Positions 6,117-16,240 of a stretch of 38,823 bases of DNA are shown here, piece after piece. This DNA comes from an uncultured bacterium (GTDB lineage: Bacteria; Elusimicrobiota; Elusimicrobia; Elusimicrobiales; Elusimicrobiaceae), in the NCBI GenBank assembly GCA_949297775.1, contig CASFTM010000013.1:1-38823 (forward strand), written 5' to 3'. Each line of letters opens with the position of its first letter. Position 1 is the stretch's first letter. Position numbers and translations under genes: made by a program. The notes under the pieces were generated by a model. It was not told where the DNA came from. It made no database searches and saw only the letters and a list, made by a program, of their open reading frames with translations.

Positions 6117-6671
6117 TCAAATGGTTTTGCCTAATTCCAGGGCTTCTTTTAATTTGCCGGTTTTGATGATGTCGCCAGCGTCCCAGGTTCCGCCTGCAAG
6201 CAGCATACCGCGGTCGGCCCATTTTAAGTAATCGGCAATGGCTTTATAGGTGGCTTTTAAACCGTCGTAATCGCCGTCGGCCTCGTTTCCTTCCGCCGCC
6301 GCCAGCAGGACGCATTCTTTAATTTTCAGTTTGCGCAGGGCGTTGGGCTTCATATACGCGTACAGCTTGTCCACCGCGGCTTTAAGCTGGGCGGTCATAT
6401 TGAACCAGTATAAAGGCGTGCAAAGCACCAGCACATCGGCTTCTTCCAACATCGGGGCCAGCTTTTCAAACTCGTCCGGGAACACGCACGGCTTGCCGGC
6501 GCTCCAGCATTTGTCGCACGCTTTGCAAGGCAAAATGGGGTGGAAAGCCGTTTCAAACACCTGTACTGTATGCCCGGCGGTCTTAACGCCTTGGATAAAC
6601 GCGTCCGCCAACAGGGCGCTGTTGCCCAGCTGGCGGGGACTGCCAGTTAAAACCAATACTTTTTTAGCCAT
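6117..6671 (-). CDS. Flavodoxin-family NAD(P)H reductase / iron-sulfur flavoprotein
   Basis: 184 aa. Flavodoxin-like fold with the FMN phosphate loop near the N-terminus (VLTGSPRQLGNSALLADAF). A compact cysteine motif CKACDKCWSAGKPC at about residues 49-62 resembles the cluster site of Isf-type iron-sulfur flavoproteins. The isoalloxazine contact region is seen as TPLYWFNMTAQLKAAVDK. Such proteins carry electrons between cytoplasmic redox partners, often in anaerobes. The natural substrate is unknown. AAGGAAG precedes the ATG. It is a single gene inserted on the opposite strand between khpB and mnmE, two genes that are commonly neighbours. Confidence 0.85.
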   Translation of the reverse strand: MAKKVLVLTGSPRQLGNSALLADAFIQGVKTAGHTVQVFETAFHPILPCKACDKCWSAGKPCVFPDEFEKLAPMLEEADVLVLCTPLYWFNMTAQLKAAVDKLYAYMKPNALRKLKIKECVLLAAAEGNEADGDYDGLKATYKAIADYLKWADRGMLLAGGTWDAGDIIKTGKLKEALELGKTI

Positions 6672-8205: not shown

Positions 8206-9999
8206 ATGTTTGTTTGCGAAGATAAATACGATGTGGTAGTGATTGGTGCGGGGCACGCCGGCTGCGAAGCCGCGCTGGCTGCCGCCAAATTGGGGGCCAA
8301 AACGCTCCTGCTCACCCAAAGCCTGGACACGATTGCCCAAATGTCGTGCAACCCCTCTATAGGTGGTATTGCCAAAGGGCAAATCGTGCGGGAAATTGAC
8401 GCTTTGGGCGGAGCGATGGGCCGCGTAACGGACCACGCCGCCCTGCACTACCATATGCTTAACACCGGCAAAGGCCCGGCGGTGCACTCCCCGCGCGTCC
8501 AGTGCGATAAAAAAGTCTACCAATTTACGTTTAAACATTTTCTGGAACTCCAGCCTAATTTGGACATTATGCAGGACGAAGCCGTCAAAATCTCCGTGTC
8601 GGATAACGGCGTGGACGGCGTGCTGACCCTGCGCAATACGTTTTACCATACAAAAGCCGTCATTTTAACCACGGGAACCTTTTTGGCGGGCACCATCCAC
8701 ATCGGGACGGAAATGTTCCGCGGCGGGCGCTACAACGATATGCCTTCCGACGGCCTTGCCAAAAATTTGCGCGACGACCTGCACTTAAACATCCTGCGTT
8801 TTAAAACGGGTACGCCCATGCGCATTAACGCGCGCGGGCTGGATTTTTCCAAGTTCCGCCTGCAGCCGTCCGACAATCCTTTGCAGGCCATTTCGCACTT
8901 TACCGACGAAAAAGAACAATCCAAACGCACTTTTTTAAGCTGCTATATTACCCGCACCACGCTGGAAACGGACAAAATCCTGCGCGCCAACTTCCAGCGG
9001 TCGGCTATGTACAGCGGCAACATCCACGGCCTGGGGCCGCGCTATTGCCCGTCGGTGGAAGACAAAATTAAAAAATTTCCGGACGTTACCAGCCACCCGC
9101 TTTTCTTGGAGCCGGAAGGATTTCATACGGAAGAATTTTATATCCAGGGGTTTTCCACCAGTATGCCCGAGGACGTCCAGCGCGCGCTGATTAAATCCGT
9201 CCCCGGAATGGAAAACGCTTCCATTACCCGCCCGGGATACGCCATTGAATACGATTTTTCCGACCCGCGCGATTTGTACCCTTCGCTGGAAAGCAAACGC
9301 ATTCCGCGGTTGTTTATGGCGGGGCAAATTAACGGCACCACCGGGTACGAAGAAGCCGGCGGGCAAGGGATTATGGCCGGGATCAACGCCGCGCTGAAAA
9401 CCCAGGGGAAGGAACCGTTTGTCTTGCGCCGCGACGAAGCGTATATTGGCGTACTGATTGACGATTTAATCAACAAAGGCGTAAATGAACCGTACCGGAT
9501 GTTTACGTCTCGCGCGGAATACCGCATTCTCTTGCGTAACGACAATGCGGACCTGCGCCTGACGCCGCACGCATTTAAACTGGGGCTGTTGGACGAAAAA
9601 TACAAAGCCCCGTTTGAAAAATACCAGGCTCTTTGCCAAAAGCTGATTGAACATCCTTCCGCGTCCGTGGACGAAAACGAAACGGAACTTTTGCCCTGGA
9701 CGGTGGAAAAAGCGCGCCGCCACGCCGATATTTACCACAAATACGCGGGGTATTACGACCGCAACAAAAAAGACGCCGAACGCCTGGCGGAAATGGACAG
9801 CGTCAAAATTCCCGAAGGATTTGACCCGTCTTCCGTGCGCGGGCTGTTGTTTGAAAGCGCGCAAAAGCTGGCCTCCGTCAAGCCGCAAACCTTGGGCCAG
9901 GCGGGGCGCATTCCCGGCGTAACGCCGGCAGATTTGCAATTATTGGCTGTACATATTGAACGCTTCCGGAGGCTTAAAAATGCAAAAGCGGCTCATTAA
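8206..9999 (+). CDS. mnmG: tRNA uridine-5-carboxymethylaminomethyl(34) synthesis enzyme MnmG
   Basis: 597 aa. FAD-dependent partner of MnmE. The N-terminal dinucleotide-binding motif VIGAGHAGCEAALAAAKLG is near residues 11-30. Family blocks include CNPSIGGIAKGQIVREIDALGG, GTFLAGTIHIG, and the second FAD segment AGQINGTTGYEEAGGQG. The C-terminal helical part with RAEYRILLRNDNADLRLTP contacts tRNA and MnmE. It starts directly after the mnmE stop and its last 20 bases overlap rsmG, so the three are surely co-transcribed. It is slightly shorter than the typical length of 620-630. Confidence 0.96.
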   Translation: MFVCEDKYDVVVIGAGHAGCEAALAAAKLGAKTLLLTQSLDTIAQMSCNPSIGGIAKGQIVREIDALGGAMGRVTDHAALHYHMLNTGKGPAVHSPRVQCDKKVYQFTFKHFLELQPNLDIMQDEAVKISVSDNGVDGVLTLRNTFYHTKAVILTTGTFLAGTIHIGTEMFRGGRYNDMPSDGLAKNLRDDLHLNILRFKTGTPMRINARGLDFSKFRLQPSDNPLQAISHFTDEKEQSKRTFLSCYITRTTLETDKILRANFQRSAMYSGNIHGLGPRYCPSVEDKIKKFPDVTSHPLFLEPEGFHTEEFYIQGFSTSMPEDVQRALIKSVPGMENASITRPGYAIEYDFSDPRDLYPSLESKRIPRLFMAGQINGTTGYEEAGGQGIMAGINAALKTQGKEPFVLRRDEAYIGVLIDDLINKGVNEPYRMFTSRAEYRILLRNDNADLRLTPHAFKLGLLDEKYKAPFEKYQALCQKLIEHPSASVDENETELLPWTVEKARRHADIYHKYAGYYDRNKKDAERLAEMDSVKIPEGFDPSSVRGLLFESAQKLASVKPQTLGQAGRIPGVTPADLQLLAVHIERFRRLKNAKAAH

Positions 10000-10630
10000 T
10001 TTTGCGGCTGAACGGGGGCTTACGCTTTCCGCCGCGCAGGCGGATACACTGGTGCGTTATGCGCAATTGGTGTGGGAGAAAAAGGACTTTTTAAACCTCA
10101 CCAGCGCAAGCGGCCTGGAGGAAATTATCTCCCGCCATATTTGCGACGGGTTAACCGCCGCCGCCAAAATAAACGCAATGGCGCACATCAAAGGGATACC
10201 AACTCCTCAGGTGGCGGACGCCGGCGCCGGGGCGGGATACATCGGCCTGACTCTTGCGGTTGCCTTGGAGCAGGCACAAGTAACATTGATTGAAAGCATT
10301 GAAAAACGCTGCTCATTTATGAATTGGGCGGTGTTGCAGTTAGGGTTGAAAAACGCCAAAATAAAAAACGTGCGTTTGGGACAGGGTACAAAATTTGCCG
10401 TTGATTTTTTAACCGAACGCGCCATGGGGCAGCTGCCCGATATTTTGGCCATTTGTTTACGCGCAGTCAAGCCGGGGGGCGTGTTTATCGCCTTCCAGGG
10501 GGAATTGCCGCAAACGCACGCGTGCGACGCCGCTTCCGTCGGGGGAACCTTGCTGGGAGTGGAGCCTTATACGCTGCCGTGTGACGACAAAAAACGCCAT
10601 TTGGCTTTGTTTGAAAAAAACGCTTCATGA
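9980..10630 (+). CDS. rsmG: 16S rRNA (guanine527-N7)-methyltransferase RsmG
   Basis: 216 aa. SAM-dependent methylation of G527 in 16S rRNA. The SAM-binding motif I is VADAGAGAGYIGL at about residues 78-90, and a later block reads LRAVKPGGVFIAFQGE, as in RsmG. I start it at 9980 because GGAGG lies 7 nt upstream and the family begins near this Met. A start at 9956 would add eight residues without support. It overlaps the end of mnmG by 20 bases and shares an ATGA with the next gene, so translation is probably coupled on both sides. Confidence 0.93.
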   Translation: MQKRLINFAAERGLTLSAAQADTLVRYAQLVWEKKDFLNLTSASGLEEIISRHICDGLTAAAKINAMAHIKGIPTPQVADAGAGAGYIGLTLAVALEQAQVTLIESIEKRCSFMNWAVLQLGLKNAKIKNVRLGQGTKFAVDFLTERAMGQLPDILAICLRAVKPGGVFIAFQGELPQTHACDAASVGGTLLGVEPYTLPCDDKKRHLALFEKNAS

Positions 10631-12018
10631 ATACGGTTAAGAAACTGGTTTTCTTTTTGTGGTTATTGGCCGCCGTGTTAGTAACGCCGCCGCTGTTGCG
10701 GTCGTTCGGCCTGAACCCCAAAGAAATGGTGAAAGATTTATTTTCCGATACGCCGCGCAAGGATATCATCGCTCCCGTTGCGCCCAAGCCGGCAGAGGCT
10801 CCCAAAACCGTGCCGGTTTTGGCCCCGGCGGAGGATGAAGAACGCGGGCGCGCGCGCGAACTGCGCCCCGATATTTCCGTCCCGCCGGCACCGTCCAAGC
10901 CAGCCGCCGAACCGGCCCCTGTATCCCAAGACGAAAAGGAATTTAAAGAAATGATTTCCGGCCTGGAAAATATTGCCAGCGTGGCTTCCGCCCCGGAAGA
11001 CAAGATAGACGACTTGCCCGTGCAGGCCTACCGCCCGCAGAACGCCGCCCAAAAGGTGCGCTGGCTGCCGCCGCCGCCCGGGTTTTCCACCGCGGATACG
11101 TTTAATTATTTGATCTACCGTGAAAAAAACCCCGTTACTCCAACCATCAAAACCGTTTTGGACAACATCCACGGCAACCTGATGCTGGATTTAACGCCTT
11201 TTACCATCGTCATCAAGCCCAACAAAATTTTAGTGATGCTCTTTGGGCAAAAAGACAGCTATATGAAATATACCAAGCGTCCGGCGTGGTCGGGCGCGTC
11301 GTCTGACTTACGGGCCGATACGATGTATGTGATTGAAAGCAACAGCTTTTATCCGCTGTCCGTGCACGAACTGACGCATTTGTATTTTGACGGGTATTTT
11401 TTGCCCACCATTTCGCCGCTGTGGCTTTCGGAGGGGATGGCGGTGTATATGCAAATTACCACCACTAAGGAAAAACCCAGCTGGGTGGACCGCAGCCTGC
11501 GCCGCATTTTAAAAGGCGATTATATCCCGTTTGAAGAAATGACCGAAACCGAAGATTTAAGCAATTATTCCACCCAACAGGCGGAACTTTGGTACACCCA
11601 GGCCTACAGCGTGGTGGCCTATCTGCTGCAAACGCGCACGCGGGACGAATTTTATAAATTATGCAATGAAATTAAGGAAAAAACGCCTCTTCACCAAGCC
11701 CTTTATCGCGCTTACGGAATGCCGTTTAACAGAATAAGCGTATTGGAAAACGTCTGGCGGCACGATTTGCAGAAGGCCTATCAGGATGGGAAAATTCTGC
11801 AGGCCTCCGCCCAGAAATCCGCCGCCAAAGCAGCCGCGTCCAAGCAAGTTTCTTCCGGCACCGTTTCTGCGGCAAACACCAAACCGGTTTCCGCCAAGCA
11901 GGCCCCGGCTGCCAAAACACCCGCGGCCAAAGCAAACGCCAAACCCGCTCCACAGAAAACGAAAATCAATAAGCTTAAGCTGGTTCCGACCAACGGCTAC
12001 AAAGGGGGATTTAACTGA
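10627..12018 (+). CDS. Membrane-anchored gluzincin-like metallopeptidase (peptidase MA-like), function unknown
   Basis: 463 aa. One N-terminal membrane segment (about 7-25), then a long Pro/Ala/Glu-rich stalk to about residue 150. A peptidase-like domain follows with the zinc motif HELTH at 247-251 and the downstream glutamate in LSEGMAVY (E269), the usual third ligand of gluzincins. The C-terminus is a Lys/Ala/Pro-rich tail. The active site should face the periplasm. The gene overlaps rsmG by ATGA and touches rsmH, so it belongs to this operon, between ribosome-modification and cell-division genes. A role in envelope processing is inference from position. Confidence 0.8.
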   Translation: MNTVKKLVFFLWLLAAVLVTPPLLRSFGLNPKEMVKDLFSDTPRKDIIAPVAPKPAEAPKTVPVLAPAEDEERGRARELRPDISVPPAPSKPAAEPAPVSQDEKEFKEMISGLENIASVASAPEDKIDDLPVQAYRPQNAAQKVRWLPPPPGFSTADTFNYLIYREKNPVTPTIKTVLDNIHGNLMLDLTPFTIVIKPNKILVMLFGQKDSYMKYTKRPAWSGASSDLRADTMYVIESNSFYPLSVHELTHLYFDGYFLPTISPLWLSEGMAVYMQITTTKEKPSWVDRSLRRILKGDYIPFEEMTETEDLSNYSTQQAELWYTQAYSVVAYLLQTRTRDEFYKLCNEIKEKTPLHQALYRAYGMPFNRISVLENVWRHDLQKAYQDGKILQASAQKSAAKAAASKQVSSGTVSAANTKPVSAKQAPAAKTPAAKANAKPAPQKTKINKLKLVPTNGYKGGFN

Positions 12019-12908
12019 TGAGTGAAAATTGGATACACATCCCTATTATGGCGGTGCAGATAGCCGATATGCTTTTAACCAATCCCAACGGCGTGTATGT
12101 GGACGGCACATTAGGGCTGGGTGGGCATACCAAATTTTTTCTAAGCCGCTTAGGCGCGCAAGCGCGCATTTTGGGGTTTGATAAGGACGAAGAAGCCCTG
12201 CGTATGGCGGTGGAACGCGTAAACGACCCGCGGCTAAGCGCATTTCACGCAAGTTACACCCAGGCCCCGCAGGAACTGGAAAAACTGGGCCTGCCAGGAG
12301 CCGACGGAGCTTTGTTTGATTTGGGGCTCAGCTCGTACCAGCTGGATAACCCGGCCCGCGGGTTTAGCATCGTGCACGAAGGCCCCCTGGATATGCGCTT
12401 TGACCGGCAGAACCCGCTGAGCGCGGAAGTAATCGTAAATACGTGGACGATGGACGAATTGGTGCGGATTTTGACCGAATACGGCGAAGAACGCCGGGCC
12501 GTCCAAATCGCCCAGGCTATTATGCAGGCGCGCCGGCAGGGCCGTATCGGCACCACCCAGCAGCTGGCTAAAATAGTGGAAGGCGTTTACGGCGGCAAAC
12601 GCGGCAAAACGCACCCCGCCACACAAACTTTCCAGGCCCTGCGCATTGCGTGCAACCAGGAATTGGAAACGGTGGAAAACGTCTTGGCCTCGTTAGAAAA
12701 AATCGTAAAACCCGGCGGACGCGCCGCGGTGCTGACGTTCCACTCGCTGGAGGACCGCTTGGTCAAAAACCGTTTTAAAGAACTGTCCAAAACAGGCGGC
12801 TGGATACTGGTAAACAAACATGCGCTGGCGCCCCAGTACGAGGAAATCCGACAAAACCGCCGTGCCCGCAGCGCCAAGCTGCGCGTGATTGAAAGGAGCC
12901 GGATATGA
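12018..12908 (+). CDS. rsmH: 16S rRNA (cytosine1402-N4)-methyltransferase RsmH
   Basis: 296 aa. Formerly MraW. It methylates C1402 in the ribosomal P-site and is normally the first or second gene of the dcw cluster. The SAM-binding region YVDGTLGLGGHTKFFLSR, the block FDLGLSSYQLDNPARGFS with DMRFD, and the C-terminal LTFHSLEDRLVKNRF are all present. The start overlaps the stop of the metallopeptidase gene (TGATG) and its end overlaps ftsL (ATGA). No mraZ gene precedes it. Confidence 0.96.
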   Translation: MSENWIHIPIMAVQIADMLLTNPNGVYVDGTLGLGGHTKFFLSRLGAQARILGFDKDEEALRMAVERVNDPRLSAFHASYTQAPQELEKLGLPGADGALFDLGLSSYQLDNPARGFSIVHEGPLDMRFDRQNPLSAEVIVNTWTMDELVRILTEYGEERRAVQIAQAIMQARRQGRIGTTQQLAKIVEGVYGGKRGKTHPATQTFQALRIACNQELETVENVLASLEKIVKPGGRAAVLTFHSLEDRLVKNRFKELSKTGGWILVNKHALAPQYEEIRQNRRARSAKLRVIERSRI

Positions 12909-13162
12909 AATTGTTTGGACTTGTGTTTGTGTTAGCGTTGTTCGGCTTTGGGGTGGTGATGATGCGTATTGAAATCAACCGCTCGGGCCGCAACATCAGC
13001 CAGCTGCAGAATGAAGTGGAAATTAAAGAAGCCCGCAACCAATATTTGCAGCTGGAAATTTCCCGCCTTTCCAGCCCGGGCAATATTACCCGGCTGGCGC
13101 AGGAAAAATTAGGGATGGTGCCGGCGAAACCGCACGAAATCGTTTTATTGGAAGAAAAATAA
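12905..13162 (+). CDS. ftsL: Cell division protein FtsL-like
   Basis: 85 aa bitopic membrane protein. Short cytoplasmic end, membrane helix at about residues 3-20 (LFGLVFVLALFGFGVVM), then a coiled-coil heptad region (ISQLQNEVEIKEARNQYLQLEISRLSS in part) and the sequence ITRLAQEKLGMVP seen in FtsL/FtsB proteins. FtsL forms the FtsQLB complex that activates septal peptidoglycan synthesis. I choose FtsL over FtsB because it lies exactly between rsmH and ftsI, the conserved dcw position. It starts within the rsmH stop codon. Confidence 0.88.
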   Translation: MKLFGLVFVLALFGFGVVMMRIEINRSGRNISQLQNEVEIKEARNQYLQLEISRLSSPGNITRLAQEKLGMVPAKPHEIVLLEEK

Positions 13163-13165
13163 GCT

Positions 13166-14863
13166 ATGTTTAAAAGACCGGCCTCTTCTCCGTTTGTATT
13201 CAACGTCAAAAGCCGTATGCGGGCCGCTGGCATGGTGATTTTGCTGGCGCCGCTGTGCATTTTTGTACGGCTGTTTTATATGCAGACGTTTTTGTACGAG
13301 GAATTTTCGTCCAAAGCGGAGCGCGCTATTTACAACTACCTGGCGGAAGACCGCCTGCGCGGAAAAATTTTGGACGTAAACGGGCGGGAATTGGCCGAAT
13401 CGGTGCGGACGCACTCCTGCGGCGTTAACAAACGCTACGTGCAGGACAAAAACAAAACCGTGCAATTTCTGTCCGAAACGCTGGGAATGCCCAAAAAAAC
13501 CATTTTGGACAAATGGAAACGGGCGTCCAACTTTTTCTTTGTAGCCAAAAAAATAAAACCGGACAAATACATCAAAATTTCTCAAATTCTTCGCACCCGG
13601 CTGGGCCAGGGGCTGGAACTGACGCCGGAATACGAGCGCATCCACCCGTACGGAGAAAGCGCGCTGGATTTGATTGGCGCGTCCAACTCCAAAAATTATG
13701 GTTTGTCCGGTATTGAACAAATGTATAACCGGGAACTCAGCCAGGATATCAGCAAAAAACGCGCCAAACGCGCGCGCCGCGGTGAAATCATTTACGACCG
13801 CAAGCTCAAAGAAGAACTCTCCGTGGCGAATGTTTATTTAACGGTGGACGCCGTCGCCCAGTTCTATGCCGAAAGCGCCCTTAAAAAAGCGGTGGAAGAA
13901 GTCGGCGCCGAGCACGGCGTAGCCGTGGTGCAGGAGCCCAAAACCGGCAAAATTTTGGCGGCGGCCTCGTACCCCGTTAAGGACGGGCAGTCGCTGGCGT
14001 TCCAGTTTACGTACGAACCGGGCTCCACCTTTAAAACGATTGCCGTTTCCTCTGCGCTGGACGCGGGGGTGGTGCGCGTAACCGACAGTATTGATATGGA
14101 CGGACGCAAGTGGGAAATTGCCCGCGGCGTGGTTGTGCGCGACAACCAGCACGAAAAGGATTTCCTGTCTGTTCCCGAAATTATGCAGCTTTCTTCCAAC
14201 ATCGGGGCGGGGAAAATTGCCCTGGAACTAGGGGCCAAAAATTTGTTTTACTACATAAAAGCGTTTGGTTTTGGCACCAAAACGGACATCAATTTTAACG
14301 GGGAATCCAAAGGCAATGTGCCGCCCTACAGCAAATGGACCAAAGTGGATACCGCCACCAAAGGCTATGGGTACGGGGTAGCGGTAACGCCTATCCAGCT
14401 GATTAACGCCTATTCGGCGGTGGCCAACGGCGGTATTTTGATGCAGCCGCATATCATTGACCGGATTGAATACGCCGGCGGAAAAGTGGAAAAGAAATCA
14501 AAGCCCGTTAAAATCCGCCGTGTGCTGAAGCAGGAAACTTCAGACACGATGAAAAAAGTCCTCCAAAGCGTGGTGGAAGCAGGCTCCGGCAAGCGCGCCC
14601 GCATTACCGGCTACCAAGTGGCCGGCAAAACGGGCACCGCCGAAAAACTAAGCAAAGAAGGTGGCTACGCCAAACGCAGCCACGTGGCTTCGTTCTGCGG
14701 CTTTGCCCCCGTGTCCGACCCGCAGTTTACCGTGTTGGTTATTTTGGATAATCCCGCCAAATACAGCTTTGGCGGAACGGCGGCGGCGCCGGTATTTAAA
14801 GAGATTATGGAACGAATGCTTGCGATGAAAGGCATCCAGCCGGACCAATTGGATTTTGAATAG
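13166..14863 (+). CDS. ftsI: Septal peptidoglycan transpeptidase FtsI (PBP3-like)
   Basis: 565 aa class B penicillin-binding protein. Cytoplasmic end and one membrane helix at about 20-40. Dimerisation domain with DRLRGKILDVNGRELAESV. Transpeptidase domain with catalytic Ser287 in GSTFK, SSN at 343-345 and KTGT at 488-491. It cross-links septal peptidoglycan with FtsW as its glycosyltransferase partner, whose gene lies three genes downstream. No PASTA domain is seen at the C-terminus. It starts 3 bases after ftsL without its own ribosome site, so translation is probably coupled. Confidence 0.94.
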   Translation: MFKRPASSPFVFNVKSRMRAAGMVILLAPLCIFVRLFYMQTFLYEEFSSKAERAIYNYLAEDRLRGKILDVNGRELAESVRTHSCGVNKRYVQDKNKTVQFLSETLGMPKKTILDKWKRASNFFFVAKKIKPDKYIKISQILRTRLGQGLELTPEYERIHPYGESALDLIGASNSKNYGLSGIEQMYNRELSQDISKKRAKRARRGEIIYDRKLKEELSVANVYLTVDAVAQFYAESALKKAVEEVGAEHGVAVVQEPKTGKILAAASYPVKDGQSLAFQFTYEPGSTFKTIAVSSALDAGVVRVTDSIDMDGRKWEIARGVVVRDNQHEKDFLSVPEIMQLSSNIGAGKIALELGAKNLFYYIKAFGFGTKTDINFNGESKGNVPPYSKWTKVDTATKGYGYGVAVTPIQLINAYSAVANGGILMQPHIIDRIEYAGGKVEKKSKPVKIRRVLKQETSDTMKKVLQSVVEAGSGKRARITGYQVAGKTGTAEKLSKEGGYAKRSHVASFCGFAPVSDPQFTVLVILDNPAKYSFGGTAAAPVFKEIMERMLAMKGIQPDQLDFE

Positions 14864-14896
14864 TTTAAACCGATTTGATTTTGGTAAGGAGTAAGT

Positions 14897-16240
14897 ATGA
14901 AACTTAATTTAACCCTCAGCAAAATAGCGAAAATTACCGGTGCGGAAGTCATCTCCTCCGCCCCCAAAACGAAAGTCACGTCTTTTGTAACGGATTCCCG
15001 CGTCATCCGCCCCGGCGATGCGTTTATCGCGCTGAAAGGCAAAAACCACGATGCACGGCAATTTATTCCCGAAGTCCTCCAAAAAGGCGCTTCCGTCGTG
15101 CTGGCGGAAAAAGGGTTTGATATTCCCCGAGGTACCGACGCCTCTTTTTTGCTGGTGGACGATTCTTTAAAAGCGCTGCAGGCGCTGGCTAAATACCACC
15201 GCGTAAACAGTACGTTAAAAGTGGCCGCCATTACCGGTTCCAACGGCAAAAGCACCACCAAACAAATGCTGCGCGCCATTTGCGAAACCGCCGGCGAAAC
15301 CATTGCCAATATGGGCAATTTCAACAACCAGTTTGGGGTTCCGTTTTCGCTGTTGGAAATACAGCCCAAGCATAAATACGGCATTTTTGAGCTGGGGGCC
15401 TCCCATCCCGGCGATATTGAAGAAACCGCTTCGCTGGCGGTGCCGGACGTAGCGGTAATTACCAACGTATCGGCGGCACATTTGGAATTTTTCCACGATT
15501 TGGAAACCGTCTACAAAACCAAAACCGAGATTGCCAAATGCTTGAATTTCGGCGGGACGCTGGTGTATAACGCCGACGACGCGATGCTCTGTCGTTTAAA
15601 TACCGAATTTAAGGGCAAACGCATTTCATTCGGCTTCCACCCCGGGGCGGATTTGCAGATTTTGGAAACGGAAAAATTCTCCTTTACCTACAAAGGCGAA
15701 GCGTATATGCTGGATTTGACGCTGGAACGCCACGACAAATTAAACGCCGCCGCCGCGGCCGCCGCCGCGATTGCGCTGGGGCTGTATATGGATAACGTCA
15801 AAAAAGGACTGTTAAATTATACGCCCATGCCGATGCGTTTGGAACGGCTGAAACAAAACGGCGTATCGTTTATTTTGGATTGCTATAACGCCAACCCGGC
15901 CAGTATGCAAAACGCGCTGGAAATTTTAGGGCGCGAAATGTCCAAACCGCGTATTGCGGTACTGGGCGATATGAAAGAACTGGGCGATTCGTCCAAAGAA
16001 TACCACCGGCTGGTAGCGCGCCAGGTGTTAGATAACGGCGTGGAATACGCCTTTTTAGCCGGGCCGGAAATGAAATACGCCTACGAAAAATTGAAAGACG
16101 CGCCGGGCGTGAAGGCTTTTTACGCGCCGACGCCGGAAGGGTGGACGAAGGACTTGTCCAGCGCGCTTAAAAAAGGCGGTACGTGCTTGGTTAAAGCGTC
16201 CCGCTCGATGAATTTTGAAAAAATCCTCAAGGAGATTTAG
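14897..16240 (+). CDS. murF: UDP-N-acetylmuramoyl-tripeptide--D-alanyl-D-alanine ligase MurF
   Basis: 447 aa. Adds D-Ala-D-Ala to the UDP-MurNAc-tripeptide, the last cytoplasmic step. The ATP loop is ITGSNGKSTTK at about 112-122. The MurF-specific blocks MGNFNNQFGVP and DCYNANPASMQNALE separate it from MurE, which normally lies at this place. The N-terminal domain contains VTDSRVIRPGDAFIAL. GGAGTAAGT precedes the ATG. murE is absent between ftsI and this gene. It is followed after 6 bases by mraY. Confidence 0.93.
   Translation: MKLNLTLSKIAKITGAEVISSAPKTKVTSFVTDSRVIRPGDAFIALKGKNHDARQFIPEVLQKGASVVLAEKGFDIPRGTDASFLLVDDSLKALQALAKYHRVNSTLKVAAITGSNGKSTTKQMLRAICETAGETIANMGNFNNQFGVPFSLLEIQPKHKYGIFELGASHPGDIEETASLAVPDVAVITNVSAAHLEFFHDLETVYKTKTEIAKCLNFGGTLVYNADDAMLCRLNTEFKGKRISFGFHPGADLQILETEKFSFTYKGEAYMLDLTLERHDKLNAAAAAAAAIALGLYMDNVKKGLLNYTPMPMRLERLKQNGVSFILDCYNANPASMQNALEILGREMSKPRIAVLGDMKELGDSSKEYHRLVARQVLDNGVEYAFLAGPEMKYAYEKLKDAPGVKAFYAPTPEGWTKDLSSALKKGGTCLVKASRSMNFEKILKEI

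What the first reader, a model, noticed from the sequence alone, without database searches (positions are those of the whole stretch)
10627..12018. Unassigned periplasmic gluzincin embedded in the division operon
A membrane-anchored protein with HELTH (247-251) and E269 on a long Pro/Ala stalk overlaps rsmG and rsmH. Its position just before rsmH-ftsL-ftsI suggests work on the envelope or septum. I know of no described division factor of this type at this place.
Basis: partly seen in the sequence, partly recalled or inferred. Interest (0 to 1): 0.5.

Follow-up and report, generated by a model that had tools for sequence, protein, structure and literature searches.

The report
Exported zinc protease beside division genes
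A bacterial gene for a probably exported, membrane-tethered zinc protease of unknown target has stayed next to the head of the cell-division gene cluster across part of one class of Elusimicrobiota, which makes it a good but untested candidate for a protease that works on the growing or dividing cell envelope.

Summary
Window 10627-12018 (+) is a 463-aa ORF with HELTH (247-251) and E269, overlapping rsmG by 4 nt and rsmH by 1 nt. It passes the Pfam cut-off of Peptidase_MA_2. AlphaFold2 gives an N-terminal helix, a disordered stalk and a confident domain; the nearest solved folds are M9 collagenase peptidase domains and M30 lugdulysin. So it is very probably an active zinc endopeptidase. A strong match occurs in 85 of 86 sampled genomes of four families. 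It lies beside rsmG in 79 of 85 and within 2.5 kb of rsmH in 79 of 85, most misses being contig ends. The zinc motif is intact in 84 of 85. It is absent from 19 rsmH loci of 11 other families: a conserved clade trait, not phylum-wide. A division role is unproven: linkage to mnmG-rsmG is equally tight, and in relatives that keep mraZ the gene lies before mraZ, at the edge of the division cluster. Best reading: an envelope protease made together with the septal machinery, substrate unknown.

The parts
10627..12018 (+). Probably exported, inner-membrane-tethered gluzincin (called GLZ here), 463 aa, PF13485 family
10633..10704 (+). N-terminal helix, residues 3-26: membrane anchor (uncleaved signal anchor, inferred)
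   Evidence: sequence
10747..11073 (+). Pro/Ala/acidic stalk, residues 41-149, mostly predicted disordered
11074..11796 (+). Catalytic gluzincin domain, residues 150-390
11281..11295 (+). P219-x-W221-S222-G223 just before the predicted strand 224-227; compared with the collagenase double-Gly motif (inference)
11365..11379 (+). HELTH (H247, E248, H251): two zinc ligands and the general base
11431..11433 (+). E269, third zinc ligand, in WLSEG
11593..11595 (+). Y323, invariant in 70 of 70; proposed transition-state tyrosine, by spacing only
11797..12015 (+). Basic Lys/Ala/Pro tail ending in KTKINKLKLVPTNGYKGGFN; this end was seen only in the window's genus
12001..12009 (+). Ribosome-binding-like sequence of rsmH inside the end of the gene
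   Evidence: read
9980..10630 (+). rsmG (gidB), upstream neighbour, 4-nt overlap
12018..12908 (+). rsmH (mraW), downstream neighbour, 1-nt overlap
12905..13162 (+). ftsL-like gene (DivIC family)
13166..14863 (+). ftsI-type class B penicillin-binding protein (PBP_dimer + transpeptidase)

Best explanation
GLZ is an active, exported zinc endopeptidase held at the outer face of the inner membrane by an N-terminal helix. A flexible stalk of about 100 residues lets its catalytic domain reach across the periplasm. H247, H251 and E269 bind zinc, E248 is the general base, Y323 probably stabilises the transition state, and the W-S-G stretch before the edge strand probably holds the substrate backbone as the double-Gly motif does in collagenases. 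Because its gene overlaps rsmG and rsmH-ftsL-ftsI, it is made together with the septal peptidoglycan machinery, and it most likely trims or removes periplasmic parts of envelope or septal proteins during growth and division. Shown by computation: family, fold, intact catalytic residues, strong constraint, conserved and in this family overlapping position. Inferred: export and topology, catalysis, translational coupling, the roles of Y323 and W-S-G, and the link to division. Unknown: the substrate.
For: PF13485 above its cut-off (34.1 against 32.4 bits); 23 of 23 diverse orthologues match it at E <= 0.01. Whole-domain fold match to M9 peptidase domains (7wss_A Z 16.9, rmsd 3.2, 221 aligned) and M30 lugdulysin (7bb8_A Z 15.8, rmsd 3.7, 229 aligned). 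HExxH...SEG in 84 of 85. E248 to Y323 is 75 residues; the lugdulysin mutant entry E242Q Y315F gives 73. Catalytic domain 76% identical within the genus against 37% for the stalk (30 loci). Across 44 loci its mean pairwise identity (0.42) is like that of FtsI (0.41) and above RsmG (0.36). A strong match in 85 of 86 genomes of four families, beside rsmG in 79 and near rsmH in 79 of those 85. In the window's family 47 of 49 loci that can be judged have the GLZ stop within 30 nt of the place homologous to the rsmH start. Kept in place while mraZ was not found in 5 of 9 checked genomes and murE lies elsewhere in the family. 24 operon copies form one group against 20 other copies, support 100/99.
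Against: No experiment, no localisation, no substrate. The gene is as tightly linked to mnmG-rsmG (not division genes) as to rsmH-ftsL-ftsI. In families with mraZ the order is rsmG-GLZ-mraZ-rsmH, so the gene lies just outside the classical dcw cluster. Two genomes keep GLZ after rsmG without a nearby rsmH (L049: none in 8.9 kb) or with about 5.4 kb inserted (L053). Nineteen loci of 11 other families have rsmH and an ftsI-type gene without it. Weak N-terminal conservation argues against a fixed membrane-embedded partner. In one search RsmH and FtsI distances track each other (r 0.89) better than GLZ tracks either (0.86, 0.83), and GLZ tracks RsmG least (0.67), so distance correlation shows shared descent, not interaction.
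Confidence: 0.45

Rival explanations
1. A general envelope housekeeping protease (turnover of misfolded periplasmic or membrane proteins) whose place beside rsmH-ftsL-ftsI is only operon inertia at a cluster of housekeeping genes, oxaA-jag-mnmE-mnmG-rsmG.
For: oxaA/yidC (membrane protein insertase), jag, mnmE, mnmG and rsmG keep order with it much as ftsI does. In families that keep mraZ the gene lies on the mnmG-rsmG side of mraZ. Nineteen loci of 11 families lack it at the rsmH locus.
Against: The window genome already has M48, S41 and trypsin-like (DegP-type) families, so no vacancy is evident. Close packing against rsmH in the window's family.
Confidence: 0.35
2. A surface or shed peptidase for feeding on host or food proteins in the gut; the stalk and tail hold it at the cell surface or are cut to release it.
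For: The fold is nearest to secreted collagenases and lugdulysin. Many records are gut or rumen MAGs (titles). Some N-termini look by eye like cleavable signal peptides.
Against: Close packing against rRNA-methylation and septal genes would be odd for a feeding enzyme. Most N-termini look uncleaved by eye.
Confidence: 0.1
3. A zinc-binding structural or pseudo-enzyme subunit of the division complex that no longer cuts peptides.
For: Position only.
Against: E248, both His, E269, W221, S222 and Y323 are invariant in 70 of 70; a pseudo-enzyme would be expected to lose some of them.
Confidence: 0.04

Closest known systems
Pfam PF13485 Peptidase_MA_2 (peptidase MA superfamily, gluzincins)
   Same: Sequence match above the curated cut-off; HExxH plus downstream Glu
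   Different: The family description gives no specific function; this subfamily has an N-terminal helix, a long stalk and a fixed place before (mraZ-)rsmH
M9 bacterial collagenases, peptidase domain (ColG, ColH, ColT; Vibrio and Grimontia enzymes)
   Same: Best fold match over the whole domain (Z 14.4-16.9 in the rows shown); gluzincin helices; a Gly-containing turn before an edge strand
   Different: In M9 the third ligand lies 28-30 residues downstream (PMC3711286, passages read); here 17-18 residues intervene. Only 1 of 23 members reaches the M9 Pfam model, at E 0.007. No activator domain here. M9 enzymes are secreted (recalled)
M30 hyicolysin family (lugdulysin, 7bb8)
   Same: Z 15.8, rmsd 3.7 over 229 residues; similar spacing of catalytic Glu and Tyr (73 against 75)
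   Different: 12-14% identity; no sequence match by phmmer or profile in PDB sequences
M1 aminopeptidases
   Same: Gluzincin fold (Z about 11.5-13), HExxH-x17/18-E
   Different: GAMEN exopeptidase motif (recalled) in 0 of 85; Pfam M1 below its cut-off
Other Elusimicrobiota PF13485 proteins
   Same: Same catalytic domain; 1-5 PF13485 matches per genome, operon copy included, in 12 of 13 genomes checked
   Different: By eye signal-peptide, lipoprotein or helix-anchored short forms, and open frames over 900 aa, at other places; 20 of the weaker copies separate from the operon group with 100/99 support

Membership tests
PF13485 Peptidase_MA_2 | Score over the curated cut-off | tested here: met
   34.1 against 32.4 bits; 2 of 4 orthologues scanned singly fall just below it (31.5 and 31.9), but 23 of 23 match at E <= 0.01
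Gluzincins, clan MA(E) | HExxH plus a Glu on the next helix as third ligand, in the gluzincin fold | tested here: met
   84 of 85 sequences; helices 241-256 and 265-280 in the model; fold matches
M9 collagenases | Third ligand Glu 28-30 residues downstream | tested here: not met
   17 residues between second His and Glu in 52, 18 in 32, of 84; M9 spacing from PMC3711286 passages
M9 collagenases | Match to PF01752 Peptidase_M9 | tested here: not met
   1 of 23 members at E 0.007; not the window protein
M1 aminopeptidases | GAMEN exopeptidase motif and PF01433 over its cut-off | tested here: not met
   No GAMEN-like motif in 85; 15.1 against 27.7 bits
M30 hyicolysin | Sequence relationship to hyicolysin/lugdulysin | tested here: inconclusive
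   Fold match only, Z 15.8; no sequence hit in PDB sequences
Divisome component | Gene in or at the division cluster, conserved | tested here: met
   79 of 85 loci have rsmH within 2.5 kb downstream and 78 of 85 an ftsL/ftsI match within 6 kb; the misses are mostly contig ends
Divisome component | Present in dividing relatives generally | tested here: not met
   Absent from the rsmH locus in 19 loci of 11 families
Divisome component | Septal localisation, interaction or division phenotype | not testable with these tools
   needs experiments
Inner-membrane-tethered protease | Uncleaved N-terminal helix, catalytic domain outside | tested here: inconclusive
   Helix 3-26 predicted; N-termini vary in the genus

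The most novel reading that the evidence does not exclude
GLZ is a dedicated, clade-specific divisome protease: a stalked, membrane-tethered gluzincin that cuts the periplasmic parts of FtsL, FtsI or a partner to time septal wall synthesis, a kind of periplasmic proteolytic control of the septum by a gluzincin that my nine named searches of an open-access library did not show in print.
Probability: 0.17. Interest if true: 0.75.

Novelty: new variant of a known kind. Interest (0 to 1): 0.42.

Why it matters
Few proteases are known to act on the septal machinery from the periplasmic side, and I know of little work on division in Elusimicrobiota (both from my own knowledge). A protease gene kept at the head of the division cluster in four families, packed against rsmH in one of them and about as constrained as FtsI, is a concrete candidate. 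One genome that carries it is a single contig of 1,643,562 bases (G034), a size that I recall for the cultured Elusimicrobium minutum, so a direct test may be possible. It also puts a testable member of the PF13485 family in a defined gene context.

Tried and rejected
M9 or M1 membership: rejected on ligand spacing, missing GAMEN and weak Pfam scores. Phage origin: PHROGs gave only one hit at E 0.43, to the tail. Sequence relatives in the PDB: none convincing. A regulatory RNA fold at the GLZ/rsmH junction: none beyond chance (z 0.09). Promoters and terminators: no clear excess over shuffles (4 against a mean of 2.8, and 3 against 6.8), so an internal promoter is neither shown nor excluded. 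The conserved end NGYKGGF as a docking motif: the YKGGF codons carry the rsmH ribosome-binding-like sequence, so part of the conservation may serve rsmH; the last 23 residues occur once in the genome, and the core I[NP][KQ]LxxV is in 30 of 37 genus loci. A loss of GLZ in G132: not concluded, because its contig starts about 530 bp before mraZ and mnmG is not found either. GLZ as a stand-in for missing proteases: M48, S41 and trypsin-like families are present in G000. The 170-aa membrane neighbour: no Pfam hit; its model's best fold match is ImcA at Z 11.5 (rmsd 4.1, 162 aligned), under the level of about 13 that the tool asks for in helical bundles, and Foldseek has nothing at E <= 0.001.

Slips and limits. 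My first pattern count used a wrong spacing and gave 0; one search replaces it. One search's stricter motif WYxx[AS][YF]S misses 7 of 85; one search counts Y323 in 70 of 70. In one search the MnmG comparison failed (not a number) and was dropped; 44 of 85 loci entered that call (all five genes found, locus over 6 kb), and only columns filled in over 80% of rows were used. One search counted only loci where a start codon lay within 60 nt and took the nearest one, so its '47 of 47' is partly by construction; one search recounts all 51 loci of the family: 49 can be judged, 47 lie within 30 nt, L046 has mraZ between, L177 is a broken reading, and L020 and L176 end at a contig edge. The GLZ profile had no positive control there; supplies it (85 of 85 operon loci found, 0 of 34 negative loci). 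The tree used 24 of the 70 operon copies then held, and 20 others. That none of the 79 genomes left unlisted belongs to f1, f2, f7 or f8 is read from the order of the list.

Papers: PMC8871954 and PMC3711286, passages seen; the others only as search listings. 'Not found in print' rests on those nine searches of the open-access library only.

Full report
What is there. The window carries oxaA/yidC-jag-mnmE-mnmG-rsmG-GLZ-rsmH-ftsL-ftsI-murF-mraY-ftsW-murG on the + strand. Pfam confirms eight neighbours. NCBIfam adds yidC and mraY over the cut-off; ftsW (329.3 against 337.5 bits) and murG (248.4 against 250.25) come just under theirs. GLZ (10627-12018) codes for 463 aa with HELTH at 247-251 and E269. 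It overlaps rsmG by 4 nt and rsmH by 1 nt (read). PF13485 Peptidase_MA_2 matches at 34.1 bits against a cut-off of 32.4.

Structure. AlphaFold2 on 23 orthologues gives a helix at 3-26, disorder through most of 48-136 and a domain with pLDDT mostly over 90 from about 150 to 390. Foldseek's best matches are M9 collagenase peptidase domains (E 1.2e-5), with M30 lugdulysin and M1 enzymes behind. VIA-align gives Z 16.9 for 7wss_A (rmsd 3.2, 221 aligned), 15.8 for 7bb8_A (rmsd 3.7, 229 aligned) and about 11.5-13 for M1 enzymes. M9 and M30 enzymes cut inside proteins (own knowledge), and GAMEN, the M1 exopeptidase motif (recalled), is in 0 of 85 sequences. An endopeptidase is thus the likelier reading.

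Catalytic residues. In 70 orthologues H247, E248, H251, E269, P219, W221, S222, D255 and Y323 are invariant. In 85, HExxH...SEG is intact in 84, the exception being the broken copy L177; 17 residues (52) or 18 (32) lie between the second His and the Glu. Y323 stands 75 residues after E248 in the window; in the 78 sequences with the full motif the distance is 74-77. The title of PDB 7bb9 names E242 and Y315 in lugdulysin, 73 apart. In ColG a Gly-Gly motif before the edge strand holds the substrate (PMC3711286, passages). GLZ has W-S-G in most rows, just before strand 224-227. These two functional equivalences are inferences from spacing and topology.

Distribution. Of 198 genomes drawn from the phylum, 99 match the window protein at E <= 0.001. 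I fetched all 85 strong matches, from families f1, f2, f7 and f8 as the tool numbers them; f7 and f8 are labelled same class but not same order as the window. By tblastn, rsmG lies just upstream in 79 of 85: five of the six misses end at a contig edge, and L067 has a diverged rsmG-like ORF at the place. rsmH lies within 2.5 kb downstream in 79 of 85: four misses are contig edges, L049 has none in 8.9 kb, and L053 has about 5.4 kb inserted before mraZ-rsmH. G132, the one listed genome of these families without a strong match, has a contig that starts about 530 bp before mraZ, and its mnmG is not found either. The other 13 matching genomes (99 less 85 and G132) have weaker matches only. Nineteen rsmH loci of 11 other families (f3-f6, f9-f12, f14-f16), and 14 mnmG loci from 14 of 16 searched genomes, have no GLZ by profile at E <= 1, while the same profile finds 85 of 85 operon loci. 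In one search, 180 relatives were found and the best 80 kept: 74 bear Elusimicrobi- or Avelusimicrobium names and 6 are titled 'uncultured bacterium'.

History. In the f2, f7 and f8 loci that I read, the usual order is rsmG-(170-aa membrane protein)-GLZ-mraZ-rsmH-ftsL-ftsI-murE (murE of L050 confirmed by NCBIfam). The membrane protein is found by profile in 22 of 31 such loci that have upstream sequence, and in none of the 51 loci of the window's family. mraZ is not found in 5 of 9 whole genomes checked, all five of the window's family (G000, G040, G034, G013, G126), but is present in G128, G132, G045 and G110. The best murE match lies elsewhere in the four genomes of this family that I checked (G000, G034, G128, G132). 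GLZ stayed: of 51 loci of the family, 49 can be judged and in 47 the GLZ stop lies within 30 nt of the place homologous to the rsmH start; L046 has mraZ between and L177 is broken (nearest start codons). A tree of 24 operon copies and 20 others puts all operon copies on one side of a branch with 100/99 support: one origin at this place, then vertical descent, is the simplest account.

Constraint. Over 44 loci the mean pairwise identity is 0.48 for RsmH, 0.42 for GLZ, 0.41 for FtsI and 0.36 for RsmG. Within the genus (30 loci) the catalytic domain keeps 76%, the stalk 37%, the N-terminus 30% and the tail 22%, but the last 23 residues keep 63% (the last two over 351 of 435 pairs). The C-terminal motif occurs in 30 of 37 genus loci and its full end once in the genome; its YKGGF codons hold the rsmH ribosome-binding-like sequence, so its conservation has two possible causes.

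Reading. A zinc endopeptidase outside the inner membrane is well supported (my estimate 0.85). That it serves the envelope during growth and division is the best single account of a constrained and persistent place before rsmH-ftsL-ftsI (0.45). The main rival is a general envelope protease kept there by inertia (0.35): oxaA, jag, mnmE, mnmG and rsmG keep order with it about as well, the gene lies on the far side of mraZ where mraZ is kept, and relatives have rsmH-ftsI loci without it. The genome also holds M48, S41 and trypsin-like families, so GLZ is not an obvious stand-in for a missing protease. I found no paper on such a protein in nine searches of an open-access library, which is weak evidence of absence.

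Noticed in passing
L045:8318-8830 (found by profile in 22 operon loci in all): A 170-aa six-helix membrane protein without Pfam match sits between rsmG and GLZ outside the window's family. Its model's best fold match is the diguanylate cyclase ImcA (Z 11.5, below a safe level); it may be a sensor-like partner of GLZ.
   Followed up: partly
window 12018-16240; genome G000: mraZ was not found in the whole genome and the best murE match lies on another contig (G000:C16), so the division cluster of this family has been reshuffled.
   Followed up: partly
window 11947-12015: Conserved C-terminal end KTKINKLKLVPTNGYKGGFN after a basic variable tail; its core is in 30 of 37 genus loci, and it doubles in part as the rsmH ribosome-binding-like sequence.
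   Followed up: partly
L076, L077, L079: In family f11 a different helix-anchored PF13485-like protein lies a few kb from oxaA and on the other strand, so two separate branches of the family lie near this gene cluster.
   Followed up: no
genome G000:C14:48573-49004: A second PF13485 match with an open frame of 549 aa in the window's genome.
   Followed up: no
window 6117-6671 (-): A gene weakly like NAD(P)H oxidoreductases (NF007280, 44 bits, under its cut-off) on the opposite strand lies between jag and mnmE.
   Followed up: no
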